Of a DNA stretch of 64,000 bases, positions 1,433-14,295 are shown piece by piece. Within the stretch, counting starts at the first letter, position 1; every line of letters begins with the position of its first letter. The DNA is taken from NCBI RefSeq assembly GCF_009865385.1, contig NZ_WWJT01000809.1, positions 1 to 64,000 of the forward strand. Reading direction: 5' to 3'. The notes under the pieces were generated by a model. It was not told the DNA's origin. It searched no databases and saw only the letters and a program-made list of their open reading frames with translations. Made by a program: the position numbers and the translations under genes. This DNA is from Streptomyces sp. SID486. Its GTDB lineage: Bacteria; Actinomycetota; Actinomycetes; Streptomycetales; Streptomycetaceae.

Positions 1433-1475
1433 GCAACGATCCGCACCCACACGATCCGCACCCAACGGAAAGGTG

Positions 1476-2306
1476 GTGAGCGCTGCCGTGAGCCGGCGCG
1501 TCACCGTAGTCACCGCTGTCCACGGCCCGTCCGCCCGGTTCCTGCCGGACGCGTACGCGTCCCTGTGCGCACAGCGGCTGCCCGCCGGCTGGGAATGGGA
1601 CTGGGTCGTCCAGCAGGACGGCACCGCGGACGAGGTCCGCCCCCACATTCCGGACGACGCGCGCGTGAGCTTCCGCCAGGGCCGGCCGGGCGGTCCCGGC
1701 GTCGCCCGGACGATCGCGCTGGCGCGCGCGGAGGGCACGTACGTCAAGGTGCTGGACGCCGACGACCAGCTCACGCCGGGCGCACTCGCCCGCGACCTGG
1801 CCGTGCTGGAGGCGGATCCCGGCATCGGCTGGACCACCTGCCGTGTCCTTGACCTGCTGCCCGACGGCTCCACGGCCGGTTTCCCCGGCGACCCCGACGA
1901 GGGGCCGATCGCACGCGGTGCCGTCCTCGACCACTGGAAACGCCACGGCTTTCGCGCACCGGTCCACCCGGCGAGCCTGTGCGTGCGGCGGGAGCTGCTG
2001 GTCGCCCTGGGCGGCTGGATGGCACTGCCGGCCTCGGAGGACACCGGTCTGCTGCTGGCGCTGGACGCCGTGAGCCGCGGCTGGTTCTCGGCACAGGCCG
2101 GTCTGCTGTACCGCAAGTGGGAGGGACAGGTCACGGGCCAGTCGGCGCACGTGGACCCCGACGAACTCACGGCCCGCAGGACGGTCACGGAGGCCCGGGC
2201 CCGCGCGCTCGCCGGCCTCGGCTGGACCTACCCCCCGGCCGCCTCCACCCCCGCGCCGCCCGCCCCCGCGTCCCCGGCCGCTCCCGTCACTCCCCCCGCT
2301 CCGTGA
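1476..2306 (+). CDS. family 2 glycosyltransferase (GT-A fold)
   Basis: About 276 residues. The N-terminal part fits a GT2 nucleotide-sugar transferase: strand VTVVTAVHG near residue 10, then VVQQDGTADEV, and the metal-binding DxD-like motif in KVLDADDQL near residue 92, followed by a long acceptor region. No membrane helix is seen, so the enzyme is probably cytosolic. The C-terminal 25 residues are an Ala/Pro tail. Adjacent GTGs at 1473 and 1476 and a third at 1488 are possible starts; the GGAAAGG at 1467-1473 is too close for the first two, so 1488 is also plausible. Donor and acceptor sugars cannot be inferred. It appears to be a stand-alone gene with no glycan cluster beside it. Confidence 0.8.
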   Translation: MSAAVSRRVTVVTAVHGPSARFLPDAYASLCAQRLPAGWEWDWVVQQDGTADEVRPHIPDDARVSFRQGRPGGPGVARTIALARAEGTYVKVLDADDQLTPGALARDLAVLEADPGIGWTTCRVLDLLPDGSTAGFPGDPDEGPIARGAVLDHWKRHGFRAPVHPASLCVRRELLVALGGWMALPASEDTGLLLALDAVSRGWFSAQAGLLYRKWEGQVTGQSAHVDPDELTARRTVTEARARALAGLGWTYPPAASTPAPPAPASPAAPVTPPAP

Positions 2307-2543: not shown

Positions 2544-3098
2544 TCAGCCACCGCCTCCCGCGACGGACAGCCAGTGGGCCACCCGGCGGACGGTGGGCTC
2601 GTCCAGCTGTTCGGCGAGGGTCCTGACCGCCTCGCCGTCCTCGTCGGTCAGGTCGTACAGACCCGCCCTGCTCAGACCGGCCAGGAGCACCTGGTGCCGA
2701 CGGCCCGTCATGCGTGCGGCGAGCCGGTCCGGTCCGGACGGGCCGGGCTCGGGGCGTTCCGGCCCGGGACCTTCCGGAGCAGCATGTTCCGGAACAGCGC
2801 GTTCCGGTGCGGCGCGTTCCGGTGCCGGGCCTTCCGCTGCGGCGGCGGGAGCCGATACTGCGGCGGACGGGCTGTCGAAGAGCCGCCAGGCGCCGTCCTC
2901 GGGTCCCCACACCGCGACCGTCACCGCCTCCCCGCGCGCCCGTACGGTCTGGGCCATGTCGCCGACGGCGTACAGCACAGGCTCCCGGTACGGGGACTCG
3001 GCGCCCACCGTCCAGGTGTCCTGGGCGTCCTCGTGGAACATCGCGACCCAGCGCGGCGCGCCGGGCGGTCGCGGGCACCGGGAACGCTGCTTCTCCAT
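2544..3098 (-). CDS. hypothetical protein with Pro/Glu/Ala linker
   Basis: 184 residues. The ATG at 3098 is chosen over the GTG at 3107 because GAAGGGG then sits 8 nt upstream. The first 75 residues (containing WVAMFHEDAQDTWTVGAES and VTVAVWGPEDGAWRLFD) look like a small folded domain. Residues about 80-125 are a low-complexity linker of PERA/PEHA units. The last 55 residues (RRHQVLLAGLSRAGLYDLTD, then VRTLAEQLDEPTVRRVAHWL) form a helical domain. Family not recognised and no catalytic motif visible. No signal peptide or membrane helix, so a cytosolic protein is inferred. Confidence 0.6.
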   Translation of the reverse strand: MEKQRSRCPRPPGAPRWVAMFHEDAQDTWTVGAESPYREPVLYAVGDMAQTVRARGEAVTVAVWGPEDGAWRLFDSPSAAVSAPAAAAEGPAPERAAPERAVPEHAAPEGPGPERPEPGPSGPDRLAARMTGRRHQVLLAGLSRAGLYDLTDEDGEAVRTLAEQLDEPTVRRVAHWLSVAGGGG

Positions 3099-3303
3099 GG
3101 CACTCACCCCTTCGGGAACGGCCGGCGCGACGAACGTAGCTGACGGTACGTCAGATATCCAGGCCGGGAGTGTGGTCTCTTCGCGGTCCGCGTGGCACCC
3201 TGCCCGCGCGCCCGGCCCGTGGCGGCGGGGTGTGCGGTGTCGTCCCGGGAGGCGGTCCTGGGCGACCGTCCCGGGACACCGCCCCGGGAGAGGAGGCCGG
3301 AGG

Positions 3304-3951
3304 ATGAGTGTGAGCGGACGGGAAGCGGCGGCGGCCGGACCGGACGCGCGGGCCGAGGAGCTGCGCCGGACCCACTGCGCCCGCGCCCGGAGCGCCTACG
3401 ACCGCGCGGTCGCCGCGTGCCGGTACGCCGGGGTCGGACCGGACGCGGCGGAGATCGTGCCGAAGGACACCGCCGGGCGGGCCGCGGGCGCCCTGCGGCT
3501 GGCGGCGCGGTCCCTCGACGCCCTGGCGGTGAGCGCGCCCGACCCGGCGGCCGACGCCCGCTGCGCCCGCAACACCGCCGCCACCGCCGCCCTGGCGGCA
3601 CAACTGGCCGCGGCCGTGCCCCACGACGTGACCGGGGATGCCACCGCGACCGTGACCGGGGATGCCACCACGGCCGCGACCGTGACGGGAGGCGCCACCG
3701 CGACCGTGACCGGGGGCGCGACCGGGGACGGCGGCCGAGCCCCGCACCACGACTCCGCCGAGCATGACGTCCCTGCCCCGGACGATGGTCCCGCCGCGGC
3801 CGCCCTGCGCGCGGCACTCGCGGCGTCCCAGGCAGCGGCGGTGGCTGCCGGGGGAACCGCACGGGGGCGGGACACGGCCCTGAACGCCGAAGCCGACGAA
3901 GCCGAGCGGCGAGCCGTCACCGCGGCCCGGGCGGCCGGGTGGCTCGTCTGA
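3304..3951 (+). CDS. hypothetical Ala-rich protein with VTGDAT repeats
   Basis: 215 residues from ATG 3304, preceded by an AGGAGGCCGGAGG ribosome binding site. Helical and Ala/Arg-rich throughout (EELRRTHCARARSAYDRAVA; DEAERRAVTAARAAGWLV). Residues about 110-143 are a tandem Thr/Gly repeat, VTGDATA / VTGGATA, encoded by 24-bp-like repeats of GTGACCGGGG. No family, signal peptide or membrane helix recognised. Coding on the opposite strand is possible in principle, but the strong ribosome binding site supports this frame. Its last codons are partly duplicated downstream at about 4010. Confidence 0.5.
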   Translation: MSVSGREAAAAGPDARAEELRRTHCARARSAYDRAVAACRYAGVGPDAAEIVPKDTAGRAAGALRLAARSLDALAVSAPDPAADARCARNTAATAALAAQLAAAVPHDVTGDATATVTGDATTAATVTGGATATVTGGATGDGGRAPHHDSAEHDVPAPDDGPAAAALRAALAASQAAAVAAGGTARGRDTALNAEADEAERRAVTAARAAGWLV

Positions 3952-4443: not shown

Positions 4444-7400
4444 GTGAGGGGTGGAACCTTGAGTTCCGACTCAGGGGCACGCACAGCCTTCGCCGAGCGG
4501 CTCGCGTTGCTGTACAAGGAGGCCGGAAATCCTCCCCTCAAGAGCGTCGCCGAATCGGTCGTACGGCTGCAGCGGATCGACGAGCGCGGCAGGCCCGTAC
4601 GGGTCTCCGCGCAGCGGATCAGTGACTGGCGCCGGGCCAGGAACGTGCCCGCCCAGTTCGCCGCCCTCGCGGCGGTCCTGCAGATCCTGATCCCGGAGGC
4701 GCGACGCCTGCGTCCCCTTCCGGTCTCCGCCGGCCTGTACGACCTCGCCCACTGGCAGCGGCTGTGGGAGCTGGCCCTGGCCGGTCCGGTGGGCGACCGG
4801 CCCGCGTCACCCGCCGAGGAGAACCGGCGGCCACCGGCCCAGGCACCCCCCGTCAGCGGCGGCGTGTGCCCGTACCGGGGGCTGGCCCCCTACCGGCACG
4901 AGGACGCCCGGTGGTTCTTCGGACGGGAGCGCAGCACGCACAGCCTCGTCGCCCAGCTCCGCGCGGCCGAGCGGTCCGGCGGACTGGTCATGCTGGTCGG
5001 CGCCTCGGGAGCCGGGAAGTCGTCCCTGCTGAACGCCGGCCTGGTCCCCGCCGTCCGGGGCGGCGCCCTGAACAGCGGCTCCGACAGCGGACGCGAAGGC
5101 CCGCCGGCCGACGGGCCGGTCCATCCCCCGCGGGGACAGGAGCACGCCCCTCGGTCCCGGCAGAGCCAGGGCCCGGAACACGAGCCGGGACGGGCACCCG
5201 AACCGGTGCCGGCGCCGGGGCCGGAACACGGACTGGCACCGGAACAGGTACCTGGCCCGGAGCGGGAACCCGCCGCGGCCCCCGCCGGCCGGGCCGTGCC
5301 GGCCTCCCCCCACGACCCCGCCGAACCCCTCGGTCCGGTCCTGCAGTTCGTCCCCGGTGCCGATCCGCTGGGTGAGCTGGTCCACCGGGTGCCCGAGCTG
5401 GCCGCCGTCGCCGTCGAAGCGCTCGCCGCCGAACGGGCGGCCTCGGAGAACCCGGCGCTGCCCGGCTGCGACGCCCCGCGCGTCACCCGGGCCGTACGAG
5501 AGGCGATCGCGGCCTGGGCGGACCGCGCGCACGCCCCGGGCGGGCGGCCGGTCGTCATCGTGGACCAGTTCGAGGAGGCGTTCACCCTCTGCTCCGACGA
5601 GGCGGAGCGGCGTACCTTCATCCATTTCCTGCACTGCGCCTGCACCCCGCCCGCAGGCTCCGGCGTGCCCGCGCCCGTCCGGGTCGTCCTCGGTATCCGC
5701 GCCGACTTCTACGAGCAGTGTCTCGGCTACCCGGAGCTGTCCGACGCGCTCCAGCACCGCCACATGGTGCTCGGCCCGCTGACCAACGCCGAGCTGCGCG
5801 ACGCGGTGACCGGCCCGGCCAAGGCGGTGGGACTCGAACTGGAGCCGGGGCTCGCCGAGCTGATCGTGCGTGAGGTGAGCGCCGACGGGCCGCGCGGCGC
5901 GCACGACGCGGGCGTGCTCCCGCTGCTCTCCCACGCCCTGCTGGCCACCTGGCAGCGCCGGAAGGCCGGGAAGCTGACCCTGGCCGGGTACCGGGCGGCG
6001 GGCGGCATCCAGGGCGCGGTGGCGGCGACCGCCGAGCGCGCCTGGTCCGGCCTGGACCCCGCGGCCCGTACCGCCGCCCGGCTGCTCCTGCTGCGCCTGG
6101 TCCGGCTGGGCGAGGACACCCAGGCCACGCGCCGGCGCGGCACCCGGCGGCAGCTGGCGGCGGAGTCGGCGGACCCCGGCAAGACGGAGGAGTCGCTGGA
6201 GGCCCTGGTGCGGGCCCGGCTGGTGACACTGGACGCGGACACCGTGGAGATCACCCACGAGGCGCTGCTGCACGCCTGGCCACGGCTGCGGCACTGGATC
6301 GACGAGGACCGGGGCGACCACCTGCTGCGCCAGCGGCTGGAGGAGGACGGCCGGTCCTGGGAGGACTCGGACCGGGACAGTTCGCTGTTGTACCGGGGGT
6401 CCCGGCTGGAGCACGCGCGCACCTGGGCCCGGTCCGCCGGGGACACCTATCTGACCCGCAGTGCCGTGGAGTTCCTGGCCGCCTCGGTGCGGCTGCGCAG
6501 GCGCACGGTGTGGCTGAGCAGGGCCGCGGTGGCGGCGCTGGTCGTGCTGGCCCTCCTCGCCGGCGGTTCCGCGGTGGTCGCCTGGAAGCAGCGCGACGAC
6601 GCCGTGTTCGAACAGGTGCTCGCCGAGGCCGACCGCGTCCAGCACACGGACCCGTCCCTGGCCGCCCAGCTCGACCTGGTCGCCCACCGGCTGCGCCCGG
6701 GCGACGAGGGCACCTACAGCCGCCTGATCTCGATAGTCAACGCCCCGCTCGCCACCCCGCTGTCGGGCCACACCGGCGCCGTCTACCTCACCTCGTTCAG
6801 CCCGGACGGCAGGACCCTGGCCACGGCCAGCTACGACCGCACGGTCCGGCTGTGGGACGTGAGCGACCCCCACCGCCCGGCCCCCCTCGGCAAACCGCTC
6901 ACCGGGCACGCCAGCTGGGTGAGCAGCGCCGTCTTCAGCCCGGACGGGCACACCCTGGCCAGCGCCGGCGACGACGGCACGGTCCGGCTGTGGGACGTCA
7001 CCGACCCCGCGCACGCCGTACCGCTCGGCAAGCCCCTCACCGGGCACCGCGGCACGATCTACCTGGTCGCCTTCAGCCCGGACGGGCACACGCTCGCCAC
7101 GGCCGGCGAGGACCGCACCGTACGGCTGTGGGACGTGACCGATCCGCGCCGGCCCGGCGCGCCGGCCACGCTGCGCGGCCACACCGCCGCGGTACGCGCG
7201 GTGGCGTTCGGCCCGGACGGGCACACGCTCGCCACGGCCGGCGACGACGACACGATCCGGCTGTGGGACGTCTCGGCCAGGCACCGGCCCGAGCCGCTCT
7301 CGACGCTGCGCGGACACACGGACCTGGTGCACTCGGTGGCCTTCAGCCCCGACGGGCACACACTGGCCAGCGGCAGCGCGGACGACACCATCCGGCTGTG

Positions 7401-8730
7401 GGACGTACGCGCCCCACGCCGTGCGACGCCCCTCGGCGCCCCGCTGACCGGCCACACCGGACCCATCTGGTCGGTGGCCTTCAGTCCCGACGGCGGCCGG
7501 CTGGCCGCCGCGAGCGCGGACAGCACGGCCAGCCTGTGGAACATCAGCGATCCGGCGTCCCCGTCCCAGGTCGGCGAGCCGCTCGCGGGCAGCAGCGGTG
7601 AGATGTACGCCCTGGGGTTCAGCCCGGACGGCCGCACCCTCGCCACCGGCAGCGGGGACGGCAAGGTGCGCCTGTGGTCGGTCCCGACCTCGGACATGAT
7701 CGGCCGGAGCGGAGCGTTCCGCCCGGACGGCCGGGTGCTGGCCACCGCCGCCCGGGACGGCAGGGTGCGGTTGTGGAACGTGACGCGCACCGGCCGGCCC
7801 GTACCGCTCGGCACCCCGTTCATGCCCGCCGACGGCGACCAGCACACGCTGGTGTTCTCCCCCGACGGCCGCACCCTCGCCGTTCTCGCCGGTGACCGCA
7901 CGGTGCGCCTGTGGAACGTCGCCGACCCCGCCCACCCGGTCCCCGCCGGCCCCTCACTGGCGCTGCGGACCCGCTTCATGGGGCCCAACGCGCTGGCCTA
8001 CAGCCCGGACGGGCGCACCGTCGCCACCGCCCACGACGACCGCACGATCCAGCTGTGGAACGTCACCGACCCCGCGCACGCCGTACCGGTCGGCAAGCCG
8101 ATCACGGGCCACCGCGGCTACATCAACGCCCTCGCCTTCAGCCCGGACGGGCGCACCCTGGCCAGCGGCAGCGCGGACAGCACGATCCGGCTGTGGAACG
8201 TCACCGACCCCGCGCACGCCGTACCGCTCGGCAAGCCCCTCACCGAGCACACGGGTCCCGTCAACGCCCTCGTCTACAGCGCGGACGGGCGCACCCTGGC
8301 CAGCGGGAGCGACGACGACACGGTCCGGCTGTGGAACGTCACCGACCCCGCCGCGGCGACCGCGCTGGGCGCCCCGCTCACCGGCCACACCGAGGCGGTG
8401 ACGTCCCTGACCCTCGGCGCGGACGGTCACATCCTGGCCAGCGGCGGCAACGACAACACGGTCCGGCTGTGGAACGTCACCGACCCCGCCGCGGCGACCG
8501 CGATCGGCCAGTCGATGAGCCCGAACGCCAAGGCGGGGAACTTCCTCTCCTTCAGCCCCAACAGCCGTGTCCTCGGCGTCTCCAGCGGCACCGACACGGT
8601 CCGTCTGTGGAGTCTGGACGCCGACACCGCGATCCGGCACATCTGCTCGGTCACCCGGGGCGTACTGACCCCCGGGCGGTGGCACGAGTACCTGTCCCGC
8701 CTGTCCTACGACCCGCCGTGCGGGCGATGA
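4444..8730 (+). CDS. nSTAND1 ATPase with 14 WD40 repeats
   Basis: 1428 residues. Residues 1-100 form a helical, HTH-like domain (VSAQRISDWRRARNVPAQF). At about 150 the nSTAND1 lead-in CPYRGLAPY...WFFGRE begins, with Walker A GASGAGKS at 186-193 and Walker B VVIVDQFEE at 370-378. A Pro/Glu/Gly-rich insert of about 75 residues follows Walker A. An arm with HEALLHAWPRL ends at about 640, then one membrane helix (about 692-712). Residues about 772-1400 hold 14 WD40 repeats ending in RLWDV or RLWNV, enough for two seven-bladed propellers. STAND proteins are signal-dependent switches; here the propellers are the likely sensor. The ligand and output are unknown. A TTG at 4459 with GAGGGG 9-14 nt upstream is an alternative start. 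Confidence 0.9.
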   Translation: MRGGTLSSDSGARTAFAERLALLYKEAGNPPLKSVAESVVRLQRIDERGRPVRVSAQRISDWRRARNVPAQFAALAAVLQILIPEARRLRPLPVSAGLYDLAHWQRLWELALAGPVGDRPASPAEENRRPPAQAPPVSGGVCPYRGLAPYRHEDARWFFGRERSTHSLVAQLRAAERSGGLVMLVGASGAGKSSLLNAGLVPAVRGGALNSGSDSGREGPPADGPVHPPRGQEHAPRSRQSQGPEHEPGRAPEPVPAPGPEHGLAPEQVPGPEREPAAAPAGRAVPASPHDPAEPLGPVLQFVPGADPLGELVHRVPELAAVAVEALAAERAASENPALPGCDAPRVTRAVREAIAAWADRAHAPGGRPVVIVDQFEEAFTLCSDEAERRTFIHFLHCACTPPAGSGVPAPVRVVLGIRADFYEQCLGYPELSDALQHRHMVLGPLTNAELRDAVTGPAKAVGLELEPGLAELIVREVSADGPRGAHDAGVLPLLSHALLATWQRRKAGKLTLAGYRAAGGIQGAVAATAERAWSGLDPAARTAARLLLLRLVRLGEDTQATRRRGTRRQLAAESADPGKTEESLEALVRARLVTLDADTVEITHEALLHAWPRLRHWIDEDRGDHLLRQRLEEDGRSWEDSDRDSSLLYRGSRLEHARTWARSAGDTYLTRSAVEFLAASVRLRRRTVWLSRAAVAALVVLALLAGGSAVVAWKQRDDAVFEQVLAEADRVQHTDPSLAAQLDLVAHRLRPGDEGTYSRLISIVNAPLATPLSGHTGAVYLTSFSPDGRTLATASYDRTVRLWDVSDPHRPAPLGKPLTGHASWVSSAVFSPDGHTLASAGDDGTVRLWDVTDPAHAVPLGKPLTGHRGTIYLVAFSPDGHTLATAGEDRTVRLWDVTDPRRPGAPATLRGHTAAVRAVAFGPDGHTLATAGDDDTIRLWDVSARHRPEPLSTLRGHTDLVHSVAFSPDGHTLASGSADDTIRLWDVRAPRRATPLGAPLTGHTGPIWSVAFSPDGGRLAAASADSTASLWNISDPASPSQVGEPLAGSSGEMYALGFSPDGRTLATGSGDGKVRLWSVPTSDMIGRSGAFRPDGRVLATAARDGRVRLWNVTRTGRPVPLGTPFMPADGDQHTLVFSPDGRTLAVLAGDRTVRLWNVADPAHPVPAGPSLALRTRFMGPNALAYSPDGRTVATAHDDRTIQLWNVTDPAHAVPVGKPITGHRGYINALAFSPDGRTLASGSADSTIRLWNVTDPAHAVPLGKPLTEHTGPVNALVYSADGRTLASGSDDDTVRLWNVTDPAAATALGAPLTGHTEAVTSLTLGADGHILASGGNDNTVRLWNVTDPAAATAIGQSMSPNAKAGNFLSFSPNSRVLGVSSGTDTVRLWSLDADTAIRHICSVTRGVLTPGRWHEYLSRLSYDPPCGR

Positions 8731-9383: not shown

Positions 9384-9758
9384 CCCACACCCGCGGGACC
9401 GCCGACCCGTCACTCGAATCTCACCACGTCACCGCGTCGCGGACGCGGTCCGACCGGCTTCACAAGGCCATACCACCAGCGTGCGCCCGGAACCGGAGGC
9501 GCGCATGCGCAACACGGACAGCGCACCCCCCGGTGGTGCCGGAGAGACGACCGCCCCAGCCTGCTACGGCCGGGGGAACCGAAGAGACGACCGCCCGGCC
9601 TGCTACGGCCCGGCGGAGCCGGAGAGACAACCGCCCCGGCCTGGTACGGCCGGGGGAACCGAAGAGACGACCGCCCCGGCCTGCTACGGCCCGGTGGAGC
9701 CGGAGAGACGACGGCCCCGGCCTGCTCCGCCGCGCCGCTCTCCCTCACCCGTCCTCGA
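9384..9758. other. intergenic containing a 40-bp minisatellite
   Basis: 375 bp between the two-helix membrane protein and the 3' end of the MDMPI gene. Most of the second half is the tandem array listed separately. The first part shows no gene or promoter with confidence. Confidence 0.5.
9544..9731. repeat. 40-bp tandem repeat, 4.7 copies
   Basis: Units begin with GAGACGACCGCCCC at 9544, 9584, 9624, 9664 and 9705, so the period is 40, 40, 40 and 41 bp. Copies alternate between two endings, GGGGGAACCGAA (units 1 and 3) and GGAGCCGGA (units 2 and 4), so the array is an 80-bp higher-order repeat. The period is not a multiple of three and no frame carries a peptide repeat through it, so it is treated as non-coding. 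Confidence 0.9.
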
Positions 9759-10556
9759 CTACTCCTCCGGCTCCCACGCGCGGAGCAGGTCCAGCAGACC
9801 CGCGTCTCCCTCGATTCGCAGGGAGTCCGCCGGAATCCGGTCGTACACGAAGAGGACCAGCTCACCGGCCGTGCCGTGAACGGAGACGCCGGCCGCGGCC
9901 AGGCTCTCGCCGGCAGCGGCGGCAGACGTCGTGCCGGGCGCGGGGATACGGGTGGAGCGTGCGCCGTCGCCGTCGACCGTCAGGCGCCATGAGTGGCCCC
10001 CGGTGGCGTGGAAGTCGAAGGCAGTGGGCTTGTGCGGCCACGGACTCGGCGTGGCGACGCAGGTGAACAGGAACTCCTCGACCCCGTCGAGTGCCACCTC
10101 CTCCGGCAACGGCTGCGGGGCACCCACCGTGACCTGGGCGTCGTAGGTGTGCACCGCGATCTGCTGGAGCTGGTGCCGGGCGACGGCGCCACAGGTCGGC
10201 GGCGACTGCGACGCACCCCACCACGTCCAGCAACCGCGATCCGGGCCGGCCTCCCGCAGTGCGTCCCCCAGCTGCCGCGTGGACTCCGCCAACCAGTCGA
10301 GCAGGGCCTGGCGCTCCCGAGGCGCGGCCGGGGCGCCCTCCGCCGCGGACTTGGCCGGTGCGGGACCGGCGGCGACGGTGGCGGCCCAGTCACGGCGCCC
10401 CTCACCGATGTGCTGCGCCAGATCGAACAGCGTCCACTCCGGGCAGGTCGGCACCTGCACGTCGAGGCTGGGCGCGGAGGCTACCGCGGCACGGAAGGCG
10501 CTCGACCGTTCGTCTATCAGTCGCAACAGATCGGGGAACGCGAGTGTCGTTGTCAC
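9759..10556 (-). CDS. maleylpyruvate isomerase family mycothiol-dependent enzyme
   Basis: 265 residues. An MDMPI/DinB-like N-terminal four-helix domain is indicated by VPTCPEWTLFDLAQHIGEGR (conserved His after PEW, near residue 50) and by ARHQLQQIAVHTYDAQ, whose two His residues normally complete the metal site together with the first. A smaller C-terminal domain follows (TGGHSWRLTVDGDG). Members use mycothiol, the actinobacterial thiol, for isomerisation, transfer or detoxification; the substrate cannot be inferred. GTG start at 10556 with AGGGAG 5 nt upstream. Monocistronic, transcribed away from the tRNA gene. Confidence 0.85.
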   Translation of the reverse strand: MTTTLAFPDLLRLIDERSSAFRAAVASAPSLDVQVPTCPEWTLFDLAQHIGEGRRDWAATVAAGPAPAKSAAEGAPAAPRERQALLDWLAESTRQLGDALREAGPDRGCWTWWGASQSPPTCGAVARHQLQQIAVHTYDAQVTVGAPQPLPEEVALDGVEEFLFTCVATPSPWPHKPTAFDFHATGGHSWRLTVDGDGARSTRIPAPGTTSAAAAGESLAAAGVSVHGTAGELVLFVYDRIPADSLRIEGDAGLLDLLRAWEPEE

Positions 10557-10738: not shown

Positions 10739-10815
10739 TGGTGGGGCTAACAGGATTTGAACCTGTGGCCTCATCCTTATCAGGGATGCGCTCTAACCAA
10801 CTGAGCTATAGCCCC
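10739..10815 (-). tRNA. tRNA-Ile (GAT anticodon)
   Basis: 77 nt on the minus strand with encoded CCA. The acceptor stem GGGGCTA pairs with TAGCCCC, the D arm contains AGCTCAGTTGGTTAGAGC, the anticodon loop reads CTGATAA with GAT, and the T arm contains GGTTCAAATCC. It sits alone between the MDMPI gene and the DUF3566-gyrA-gyrB genes. Confidence 0.97.
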
Positions 10816-10938: not shown

Positions 10939-11682
10939 TCACTCGTCCTCCGCCAGGGTCAGCTCGATGCCGCCCACGAAGCCCGCGGAGAGGTTGTAGA
11001 TGAACGCCCCCAGTGTCGCCAGCGCCGTGGCCAGCACGACGTCGATGACCGCGATGATCGTCGTGAACATCAGCACGTGGGGGAGCGAGAGGAACGCCTG
11101 GAGGTCGAAGCCGTTCGCCTCGTTCGAGCCGGTCGCCTCCGAGATCGTGCCGCCGACCGTGGAGAACACACCCATCGCGTCCATGACCATCCACAGCACC
11201 GCCGAGGCGACGATCGTGCAGATGCCGAGCGCGATGGAGAGCAGGAAGCTGACCTTCATCACCGACCACGGGTCGGCCTTGGCCACCCGCAGCCGCGCCT
11301 TGCGGGTCCGCGGCGCGGTCCGCACGCCGGTCCGCGGCTTGCGGACCGCCCCGGCGGGGGCCGCCGGATAGGCCTGCGGCGGGTGGTACGGCCCGTCGGG
11401 CCGCTCCGGCCGCCGCTCACCGGGAAGCGGAGACGCCGGCCGTGCCTCGCCGGCCTGGGCCGGACCTCGGGTGTCCGTCACAGTTCCCCCCTGGGATGCC
11501 TGCTGGGATTCCTGCGTGCCGGAAGGGTCCGTCACGGAAGCCTTCACCGGCTTCAGATTGGTCGTGTGCGGGTCGTGCGGGTCGTTCGCACGTGCCGCAC
11601 GCGCGGCGGAGCCACGGCCGCCGCCGTCCGTTTCCGTACCTGTGGAGGTACCGGCCGATCCGGCGCCCGTGGCTCCGCTCAC
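10939..11682 (-). CDS. DUF3566 transmembrane protein
   Basis: 247 residues. The first 120 are a disordered Ser/Thr/Pro-rich cytosolic segment; the C-terminal half is the DUF3566 domain with two or three helices (VMKVSFLLSIALGICTIVAS, then LPHVLMFTTIIAVIDVVLAT and LGAFIYNLSAGFVGGIELTL). The family follows gyrA in many actinobacteria, including the mycobacterial Rv0007 position. Function is unknown, but co-transcription with gyrase is likely: only 18 bp separate it from gyrA. GTG start with AGGAGAGAG 5 nt upstream. Confidence 0.9.
   Translation of the reverse strand: MSGATGAGSAGTSTGTETDGGGRGSAARAARANDPHDPHTTNLKPVKASVTDPSGTQESQQASQGGTVTDTRGPAQAGEARPASPLPGERRPERPDGPYHPPQAYPAAPAGAVRKPRTGVRTAPRTRKARLRVAKADPWSVMKVSFLLSIALGICTIVASAVLWMVMDAMGVFSTVGGTISEATGSNEANGFDLQAFLSLPHVLMFTTIIAVIDVVLATALATLGAFIYNLSAGFVGGIELTLAEDE

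Positions 11683-11700: not shown

Positions 11701-14295
<2,595 letters not shown>

What the first reader, a model, noticed from the sequence alone, without database searches (positions are those of the whole stretch)
4444..8730. nSTAND1-WD40 ATPase with HTH-like front, one membrane helix and twin propellers
One 1428-residue protein joins a helical N-terminal domain, an nSTAND1 ATPase, a membrane helix and 14 WD40 repeats. STAND ATPases are conflict or signal switches in multicellular bacteria (established for the class). The helix between ATPase and propellers predicts that sensor and ATPase lie on opposite sides of the membrane, with the propellers outside or the ATPase inside. A PEG-rich insert of about 75 residues directly after Walker A is unusual.
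Basis: partly seen in the sequence, partly recalled or inferred. Interest (0 to 1): 0.7.

Follow-up and report, generated by a model that had tools for sequence, protein, structure and literature searches.

The report
Membrane-spanning STAND switch beside sugar transferase
A large Streptomyces protein appears to hold a two-propeller sensor outside the cell and an ATP-driven switch inside, and it usually sits beside a gene for a sugar-transferring enzyme; the protein type is known, but this layout and pairing were not found described in the papers searched.

Summary
In detail: window 4459-8730 (+) encodes one protein (1423 residues from a conserved TTG; 1428 from the GTG given) with a helical front, an nSTAND1 ATPase, one membrane helix and 14 WD40 repeats, modelled as propellers. 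Topology is well supported by sequence: strong positive-inside bias, and a cysteine pair in the C-terminal tail that is invariant in 76 of 76 aligned orthologs, in an ectodomain otherwise almost free of cysteine. That implies ATPase inside, propellers outside. Most of 21 sampled relatives share the helix and the cysteine tail, and two carry caspase or trypsin fronts, so the architecture belongs to a known family. The insert after Walker A is a hypervariable loop (median 14 residues, 4-149; 94 here). 'HTH-like' is plausible but unproven. New here: the gene is patchy in the genus (70 of 199 genomes) and paired with a GT2 glycosyltransferase (60 genomes with both, 10 STAND only, 11 GT2 only; 58 of the 60 within 7 kb) at different chromosomal places, often beside the 3' end of tRNA-Ile. 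Proposed mechanism: a surface-sensing STAND switch controlling an envelope-glycan response. Sequence supports the anatomy; ligand, output and the functional GT2 link are inferred.

The parts
4459..4779 (+). N-terminal helical domain (residues 6-112), HTH-like but unproven; among the best conserved parts
   Evidence: dN/dS 0.135, next to 0.13 for residues 139-204; mean column conservation 0.905; no Pfam hit; five predicted helices at low confidence
4858..5055 (+). first part of nSTAND1 domain with Walker A GASGAGKSS (residues 186-194)
   Evidence: Walker A identical in 76 of 76 aligned orthologs
5056..5337 (+). hypervariable low-complexity loop (residues 205-298, 94 aa here)
   Evidence: 4-149 aa, median 14, in 79 evaluable rows; 42-bp tandem repeat
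5338..6381 (+). rest of nSTAND1 ATPase with Walker B DQFEE (374-378), RADF motif, TGPA and THEALLHAWPRL
6523..6579 (+). membrane helix (residues 694-712), continued as helix to about 732 in the model
6754..8628 (+). 14 WD40 blades, read as two seven-bladed propellers, predicted outside the cell
8629..8727 (+). C-terminal tail with invariant Cys1401 and Cys1426, predicted disulfide
   Evidence: 76 of 76; similar tail in 19 of 21 relatives
1473..2306 (+). GT2 family glycosyltransferase, linked partner
2544..3107 (-). hypothetical protein, gene cluster 14 of the island
3304..3951 (+). hypothetical protein, gene cluster 22 of the island
10739..10815 (-). tRNA-Ile (GAT), 3' end facing the island
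   Evidence: window; orthologous loci
11701..14295 (-). gyrA, conserved flank on the far side of the tRNA (10939-11682 DUF3566 between)

Best explanation
It is a single-pass membrane STAND receptor. Indicated by sequence: cytoplasmic helical output domain and intact nSTAND1 ATPase, one N-in/C-out helix, and an extracytoplasmic pair of seven-bladed WD40 propellers closed by a cysteine-paired tail. Shown by comparison: the gene is accessory in the genus, lies at tRNA-side insertion sites in many genomes, and is linked to a GT2 glycosyltransferase gene. Inferred: the propellers bind a ligand at the cell surface or wall; binding is passed through the continuous 694-732 helix to the ATPase, which exchanges nucleotide and oligomerises; the N-terminal domain (probably a divergent HTH or an adaptor) then drives an output that includes the linked glycosyltransferase acting on an envelope glycan. 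Confidence: topology about 0.9; STAND switch about 0.8; functional link to GT2 about 0.55; identity of ligand and output unknown. The score below is for the statement as a whole.
For: Positive-inside: net charge of 15 flanking residues +5.2 on the N side, -3.6 on the C side, mean of 76 orthologs. Cys1401/Cys1426 invariant in 76 of 76; ectodomain has only these two in 63 of 76 and one further Cys in 13 of 76, against 2-8 per protein in the cytoplasmic half. Helix in all 81 aligned rows. Relatives: a hydrophobic segment of mean hydropathy 1.68 or more at this place in 20 of 21, C-terminal Cys pair in 19 of 21; fronts of the ten scanned are HTH_31 (8), caspase (1), trypsin (1). Walker A identical and DQFEE invariant in 76 of 76. 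Purifying selection: dN/dS 0.135 front, 0.23 ATPase, 0.30 and 0.44 propellers; 1036 of 1050 ortholog blades match the same-numbered window blade best. GT2 pairing: 60 both, 10 STAND only, 11 GT2 only, 118 neither, of 199 genomes; 59 of 60 on one contig, 58 within 7 kb. tRNA-Ile 3' end faces the gene in 31 of 31 gyrA-side loci scored, tRNA-Pro 3' end in 5 of 48 others; gyrA sites without the island.
Against: No experiment. The GT2 association is not corrected for phylogeny; 10 genomes have the STAND gene without this GT2 and 11 the reverse, and 14 of 68 well-flanked loci lack a called GT2. 40 of the 48 loci away from gyrA have no tRNA within 3 kb. I saw no integrase gene in the window's island by Pfam and found no duplicated tRNA end in the window. 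N-terminal model poor (pLDDT 51), so the switch mechanics are class knowledge. The 80 orthologs are the best 80 of 372, so conservation counts lean to near relatives. The distance between the two cysteines in the model was not measured.
Confidence: 0.5

Rival explanations
1. A regulator of development or secondary metabolism, as reported for other Streptomyces WD40 proteins such as WdpB, with the GT2 linkage incidental.
For: Purifying selection on front, ATPase and blades, with no sign of hypervariable blades. [quoted passage not shown]
Against: Patchy presence, 70 of 199 genomes, tRNA-side location in many loci and co-linked GT2 fit an accessory trait better than core development.
Confidence: 0.25
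2. A conflict (anti-phage or anti-competitor) STAND protein whose response does not need GT2; both genes merely share the same insertion hot spot.
For: nSTAND1 was named from predicted counter-invader systems (passage in PMC8195603); two relatives carry caspase and trypsin fronts; integrative-element-like genes lie downstream of the STAND gene in five loci.
Against: GT2 is the commonest companion in both location classes among the clusters counted apart from fixed gyrA-side flanks (26 of 32 and 33 of 48 loci), while other island genes vary. No PADLOC defence model fits. No hypervariability of the sensor.
Confidence: 0.3
3. A wholly cytoplasmic protein; the hydrophobic segment is a buried helix and the WD40 blades act on cytosolic partners.
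For: Leading solved WD40 matches such as AIP1 and Apaf-1 are cytosolic eukaryotic proteins (recalled); the model gives the start of the helix only pLDDT about 64.
Against: Hydropathy 2.48 with no rival segment, +5.2/-3.6 charge asymmetry, invariant tail Cys pair in a nearly Cys-free domain, same pattern in most relatives.
Confidence: 0.07
4. The post-Walker-A insert is a functional regulatory element of this protein.
For: It is long and compositionally biased here.
Against: 53 of 79 evaluable rows have 16 residues or fewer; the long versions look unrelated to each other by eye apart from their first residues in near relatives; it overlaps a DNA tandem repeat.
Confidence: 0.04

Closest known systems
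nSTAND1-WD40 proteins of actinobacteria (Pfam PF20703 + PF00400)
   Same: Domain order, ATPase domain, membrane helix, Cys-paired C-terminal tail
   Different: Divergent front domain without an HTH_31 match; GT2 partner; long loop after Walker A in a few members
Metacaspase-NACHT-WD40 proteins (PMC3501461, passages seen)
   Same: Effector-NTPase-WD40 layout; a caspase-front relative of this protein exists (L085)
   Different: The window protein has no caspase, its NTPase is nSTAND1, and a membrane helix splits sensor from NTPase
Apaf-1 (3shf/3sfz)
   Same: N-terminal output, STAND NTPase, two C-terminal propellers (Apaf-1 layout recalled); Foldseek match of the propeller pair, TMq 0.44-0.45
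   Different: Apaf-1 is cytosolic (recalled); here the propellers are predicted outside. Foldseek compared the propeller half only
Predicted STAND/GT4 counter-invader systems (PMC8195603, passages seen)
   Same: STAND NTPase coupled to a glycosyltransferase
   Different: GT4 fused or in a two-STAND system there; here a separate GT2 gene and a membrane STAND
PkwA, kinase-WD40 protein of Thermomonospora curvata
   Same: Actinobacterial signalling enzyme joined to WD40 (kinase part recalled; PMC6113231 seen as a listing and a term search)
   Different: Kinase and not STAND; that text has no hit for 'transmembrane' or 'extracellular'

Membership tests
nSTAND1 NTPase (PF20703) | profile match above curated cut-off | tested here: met
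   404 bits against 27.1; 20 of 20 rows of A1 (window and 19 orthologs) match
nSTAND1 NTPase (PF20703) | intact Walker A and Walker B | tested here: met
   GASGAGKSS 76 of 76; DQFEE invariant in 76 of 76
STAND NTPase in general | nucleotide-driven switch and oligomerisation | not testable with these tools
   biochemistry needed
WD40 beta-propeller | repeat profile and propeller fold | tested here: met
   WD40 E 2.2e-132; model pLDDT 88, seven-bladed 7big_A matched with TMt 0.94
XRE/HTH_31 DNA-binding proteins | profile match of the N-terminal domain | tested here: not met
   no Pfam family at E up to 1, while 8 of the 10 relative fronts scanned match HTH_31, the other two being caspase and trypsin
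XRE/HTH_31 DNA-binding proteins | HTH fold | tested here: inconclusive
   global profile alignment probability 25.6%, local 6.3%; five helices predicted at low confidence
Single-pass N-in/C-out membrane receptor | one hydrophobic helix, positive-inside flank, exported-domain traits | tested here: met
   by sequence only
Known anti-phage defence systems (PADLOC) | assignment of the protein or neighbours to a system model | tested here: not met
   only a match of the blade region to HEAT-ARM_XIII and weak P-loop matches to mad3/mad8; none for the four neighbours scanned
STAND with caspase effector | caspase front | tested here: not met
   no Pfam match in residues 1-140 of the window protein; present in relative L085

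The most novel reading that the evidence does not exclude
A two-gene surface-immunity unit: a membrane-spanning, Apaf-1-like STAND receptor senses phage, a competitor or wall damage from outside the cell and, through its cytosolic ATPase, switches on a dedicated GT2 glycosyltransferase that remodels the envelope, moving among Streptomyces as a tRNA-side island. STAND sensors characterised so far act on intracellular cues (recalled), so this would extend the principle to outside sensing.
Probability: 0.15. Interest if true: 0.8.

Novelty: new variant of a known kind. Interest (0 to 1): 0.48.

Why it matters
STAND proteins (NLRs, Apaf-1, bacterial Avs) are usually pictured as cytosolic sensors (recalled). 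The tail cysteines and charge pattern say that this protein, and most of the 21 relatives sampled, hold their sensor outside the cell, which changes what ligands and assays to look for. The GT2 pairing gives a concrete, testable partner for a class with few known outputs.

Tried and rejected
Insert as a feature: rejected. MAFFT borders of the loop are approximate; in L042 and L081 the extra length seems to lie further downstream, since their best BLAST segments begin at window residues 362 and 340. Arms race on the blades: not supported; blades are one-to-one orthologous and under purifying selection. The NG86 ratios used 2836 of 2850 pairs (those with ATPase dS 0.15-0.9), were not corrected for codon bias or high GC, and serve for comparison between domains only. 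Front domain by sequence in the PDB: no meaningful match. Foldseek of the N-terminal half: only weak AAA+ matches at E above 0.01, model too poor. Copy of the tRNA-Ile end elsewhere in the first 10.7 kb of the window: none. Core-genome gene: rejected, 70 of 199 genomes. GTG 4444 as start: rejected in favour of TTG 4459; a first argument from an M in some aligned rows was dropped because the tool writes any start codon at the head of a reference as M. Literature: the searches listed no paper on this protein, its topology or a STAND-GT2 pair; the library lacks most subscription papers, and Ulrych et al. 2013 was seen only as a citation.

Rows dropped: L025, L073, L041, L022 and L026 (fragmentary, truncated or split frames) were left out of the 76-row counts; L025 and L073 out of the loop counts; the start-codon count leaves out L025, L073, L041, L022 and the window. 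ARAGORN calls of 95 nt in L046 (overlapping its GT2 gene) and 83 nt in L075 are probably false; the L075 one is the single tRNA-Ile counted among the 'other' loci.
Full report
The gene. Window 4444-8730 (+) is one open frame of 1428 codons. The start is probably TTG 4459: the codon is TTG in 75 and GTG in 1 of 76 orthologs checked, behind an AGGGGTGG-like motif, whereas the window's GTG 4444 reads GTA or is missing in many. Pfam finds nSTAND1 (404 bits) and WD40 (426 bits), and nothing at E up to 1 for the first 140 residues. 372 loci in named genomes encode a relative; the best 80, kept here, are 79 Streptomyces and one record named only 'Actinobacteria bacterium'. In the window's own genome there is the gene itself and one distant relative at about 45% identity.

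The insert. Between the P-loop helix and the next strand the window protein has 94 residues (205-298), rich in Pro, Glu, Gly and Ala. In 79 evaluable rows this loop is 4-149 residues, median 14; 53 of 79 have 16 or fewer and 5 of 79 have 74 or more. Part of the window's loop is a 42-bp tandem repeat, and ARAGORN even calls a spurious tRNA-Gly in it. I read it as a permissive surface loop expanding by repeat slippage (inference).

Topology. The segment 694-712 has mean hydropathy 2.48; no segment elsewhere exceeds 1.51. A like segment stands in every aligned row. Averaged over 76 orthologs, the 15 residues before it carry net +5.2 and the 15 after -3.6. The ectodomain of about 714 residues has exactly two cysteines in 63 of 76 and three in 13 of 76, and the pair 1401/1426 in the tail is invariant in 76 of 76; the cytoplasmic half of about 641 residues has 2-8. 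Of 21 more distant relatives (20 fetched, plus L002 from the window's own genome), 20 have a hydrophobic segment (1.68 or more) at this place and 19 a C-terminal cysteine pair. The relative without the segment, L103, also lacks the pair and any recognised WD40 motif; L086 has the segment but not the pair. An invariant cysteine pair in an otherwise cysteine-poor domain beyond an N-in helix is what an exported, disulfide-closed domain would show (inference).

Folds. AlphaFold2 of residues 693-1428 gave mean pLDDT 88 and pTM 0.79, with a continuous helix 694-732 (pLDDT about 64 at its start) and propeller strands. Foldseek: 2ymu (repetitive propeller), 1nr0 (two seven-bladed propellers), Apaf-1 3shf/3sfz, and the seven-bladed design 7big at TMt 0.94. 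The N-terminal half modelled poorly (pLDDT 51); only weak AAA+ matches followed. The front has helices 11-26, 32-42, 56-64, 68-89 and 101-112 at low confidence. Eight of ten relative fronts scanned match HTH_31; a profile of 15 relative fronts aligns weakly to the window's front (25.6% global probability). HTH-like remains a hypothesis.

Evolution. Walker A is identical and DQFEE invariant in 76 of 76. Pairwise dN/dS (NG86, 2835-2836 of 2850 pairs) is 0.135 for the front, 0.13 for residues 139-204, 0.23 for the rest of the ATPase, 0.30 and 0.44 for the two propellers. In 1036 of 1050 comparisons an ortholog blade is most like the same-numbered window blade; different blades are about 47% alike within or between species. 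So the blades are old and individually conserved; I saw no sign of blade shuffling or hypermutation. The second propeller is the least constrained part measured.

Neighbourhood. In a first set of 24 congeneric genomes, orthologs (79% identity or more in the ATPase) occur in 11 and a close GT2 in 10, all among those 11; the exception, G001, is 79% complete with the match at a contig edge. In 199 other genomes drawn from the genus, at least 95% complete, the STAND ortholog (E up to 1e-100) is in 70 and the GT2 (E up to 1e-75) in 71: 60 both, 10 STAND only, 11 GT2 only, 118 neither; Fisher p 9e-29, not corrected for shared ancestry. The two sets overlap in genomes. Of the 60, 59 have both on one contig, 58 within 7 kb and one at 30 kb. 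In the 80 named loci (79 with a called STAND gene) a GT2 gene was called in 59; the order differs: upstream on the same strand 25 (gyrA side) and 7 (elsewhere), downstream on the same strand 19, downstream on the opposite strand 8. Among 68 loci with at least 6 kb on both sides, 54 have it. Other companions vary: a GntR/UTRA regulator, an FkbM methyltransferase, an amidohydrolase, a DoxX-like protein and two unknowns. The GT2 resembles, far below cut-off, teichuronic acid TuaG.

Location. In 32 of 80 loci the island lies on the gyrA side, and in all 31 such loci scored the 3' end of tRNA-Ile(GAT) faces it. Of the 48 others, 40 have no tRNA within 3 kb, 5 face a tRNA-Pro(CGG) 3' end, and 1 each has Ile (doubtful call), Tyr (3' facing) and Ser (5' facing). 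On the ATPase tree (many forks unsupported) the gyrA-side label needs 14 changes against a shuffled mean of 25.8, so place follows descent only loosely. Where the other class can be measured on one contig, gyrA is about 0.29 Mb (L056) and 0.43 Mb (L080) away in two complete chromosomes and 0.13-0.45 Mb in G009, G023 and G006. In 7 genomes without the ortholog, flanking genes of the gyrA site are present: 4 of 7 have 0.5-0.8 kb between the last flank gene and tRNA-Ile; in L107 flank gene 3 was not found there but gene 2 lies 0.5 kb from the tRNA; in L109 tRNAs were not scanned and few flank genes matched; L105 has 3.7 kb of other DNA. The window has 9.5 kb there. In five loci (L011, L015, L022, L029, L058) genes of one cluster set lie downstream of the STAND gene; scanned in L011 they are FtsK/SpoIIIE-like and DUF2637, as in actinomycete integrative elements (label recalled). 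In four of the five the gyrA-site flank genes stand upstream, so this is where tRNA-Ile would be expected, but no tRNA-Ile was called in them. So: an accessory region, in many genomes at an insertion hot spot; how it moves is unknown.

Mechanism. The best reading is a membrane-split STAND receptor: outside propellers as sensor, a helix as link, nSTAND1 as switch, the front as output, GT2 as a likely partner on the output side. Ligand and output are inferred. Relatives that carry a caspase or trypsin front (one each) support the view that the front is the output end. A developmental role stays possible: one paper passage reports that genes next to a BldD target are affected by loss of another WD40 protein, WdpB.

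Comparison with print. nSTAND1 was named in PMC8195603 from predicted counter-invader systems (passage); metacaspase-NACHT-WD40 is a described architecture (passages); GT4 enzymes are proposed STAND-linked effectors (passages). None of the passages seen describes an outside WD40 sensor on a STAND protein or a GT2 pairing; the searches are listed in Tried and rejected.

Noticed in passing
window 5205-5303 (-): ARAGORN reports a 99-nt tRNA-Gly(ccc) inside the tandem-repeat loop of the STAND gene; almost surely a false positive.
   Followed up: partly
window 9529-9726: Tandem repeat with an 80-bp unit (2.5 copies, 91% matches) between the STAND gene and the MDMPI-like gene.
   Followed up: no
window 9759-10556 (-): Mycothiol maleylpyruvate isomerase-like gene between STAND and tRNA-Ile, matched in only 4 of the 80 ortholog loci.
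   Followed up: partly
L085 4394-5443 (-): Relative with a caspase (Peptidase_C14) front on the same nSTAND1-TM-WD40-Cys-tail frame.
   Followed up: partly
L104 810-4478 (+): Relative with a trypsin-like front, a hydrophobic segment and a similar cysteine tail but no recognised WD40 motif; its ectodomain is unidentified.
   Followed up: no
L051 3580-14029 and L045 9992-19843: The island genes appear in circularly permuted order (GntR-GT2-FkbM-amidohydrolase-DoxX-unknown-STAND versus STAND-GntR-GT2-FkbM-amidohydrolase-DoxX-unknown); could mean a circular intermediate or separate insertions.
   Followed up: no
L011, L015, L022, L029, L058: Integrative-element-like genes (FtsK/SpoIIIE-like, DUF2637) lie downstream of the STAND gene, on the side where tRNA-Ile stands in gyrA-side loci.
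   Followed up: partly
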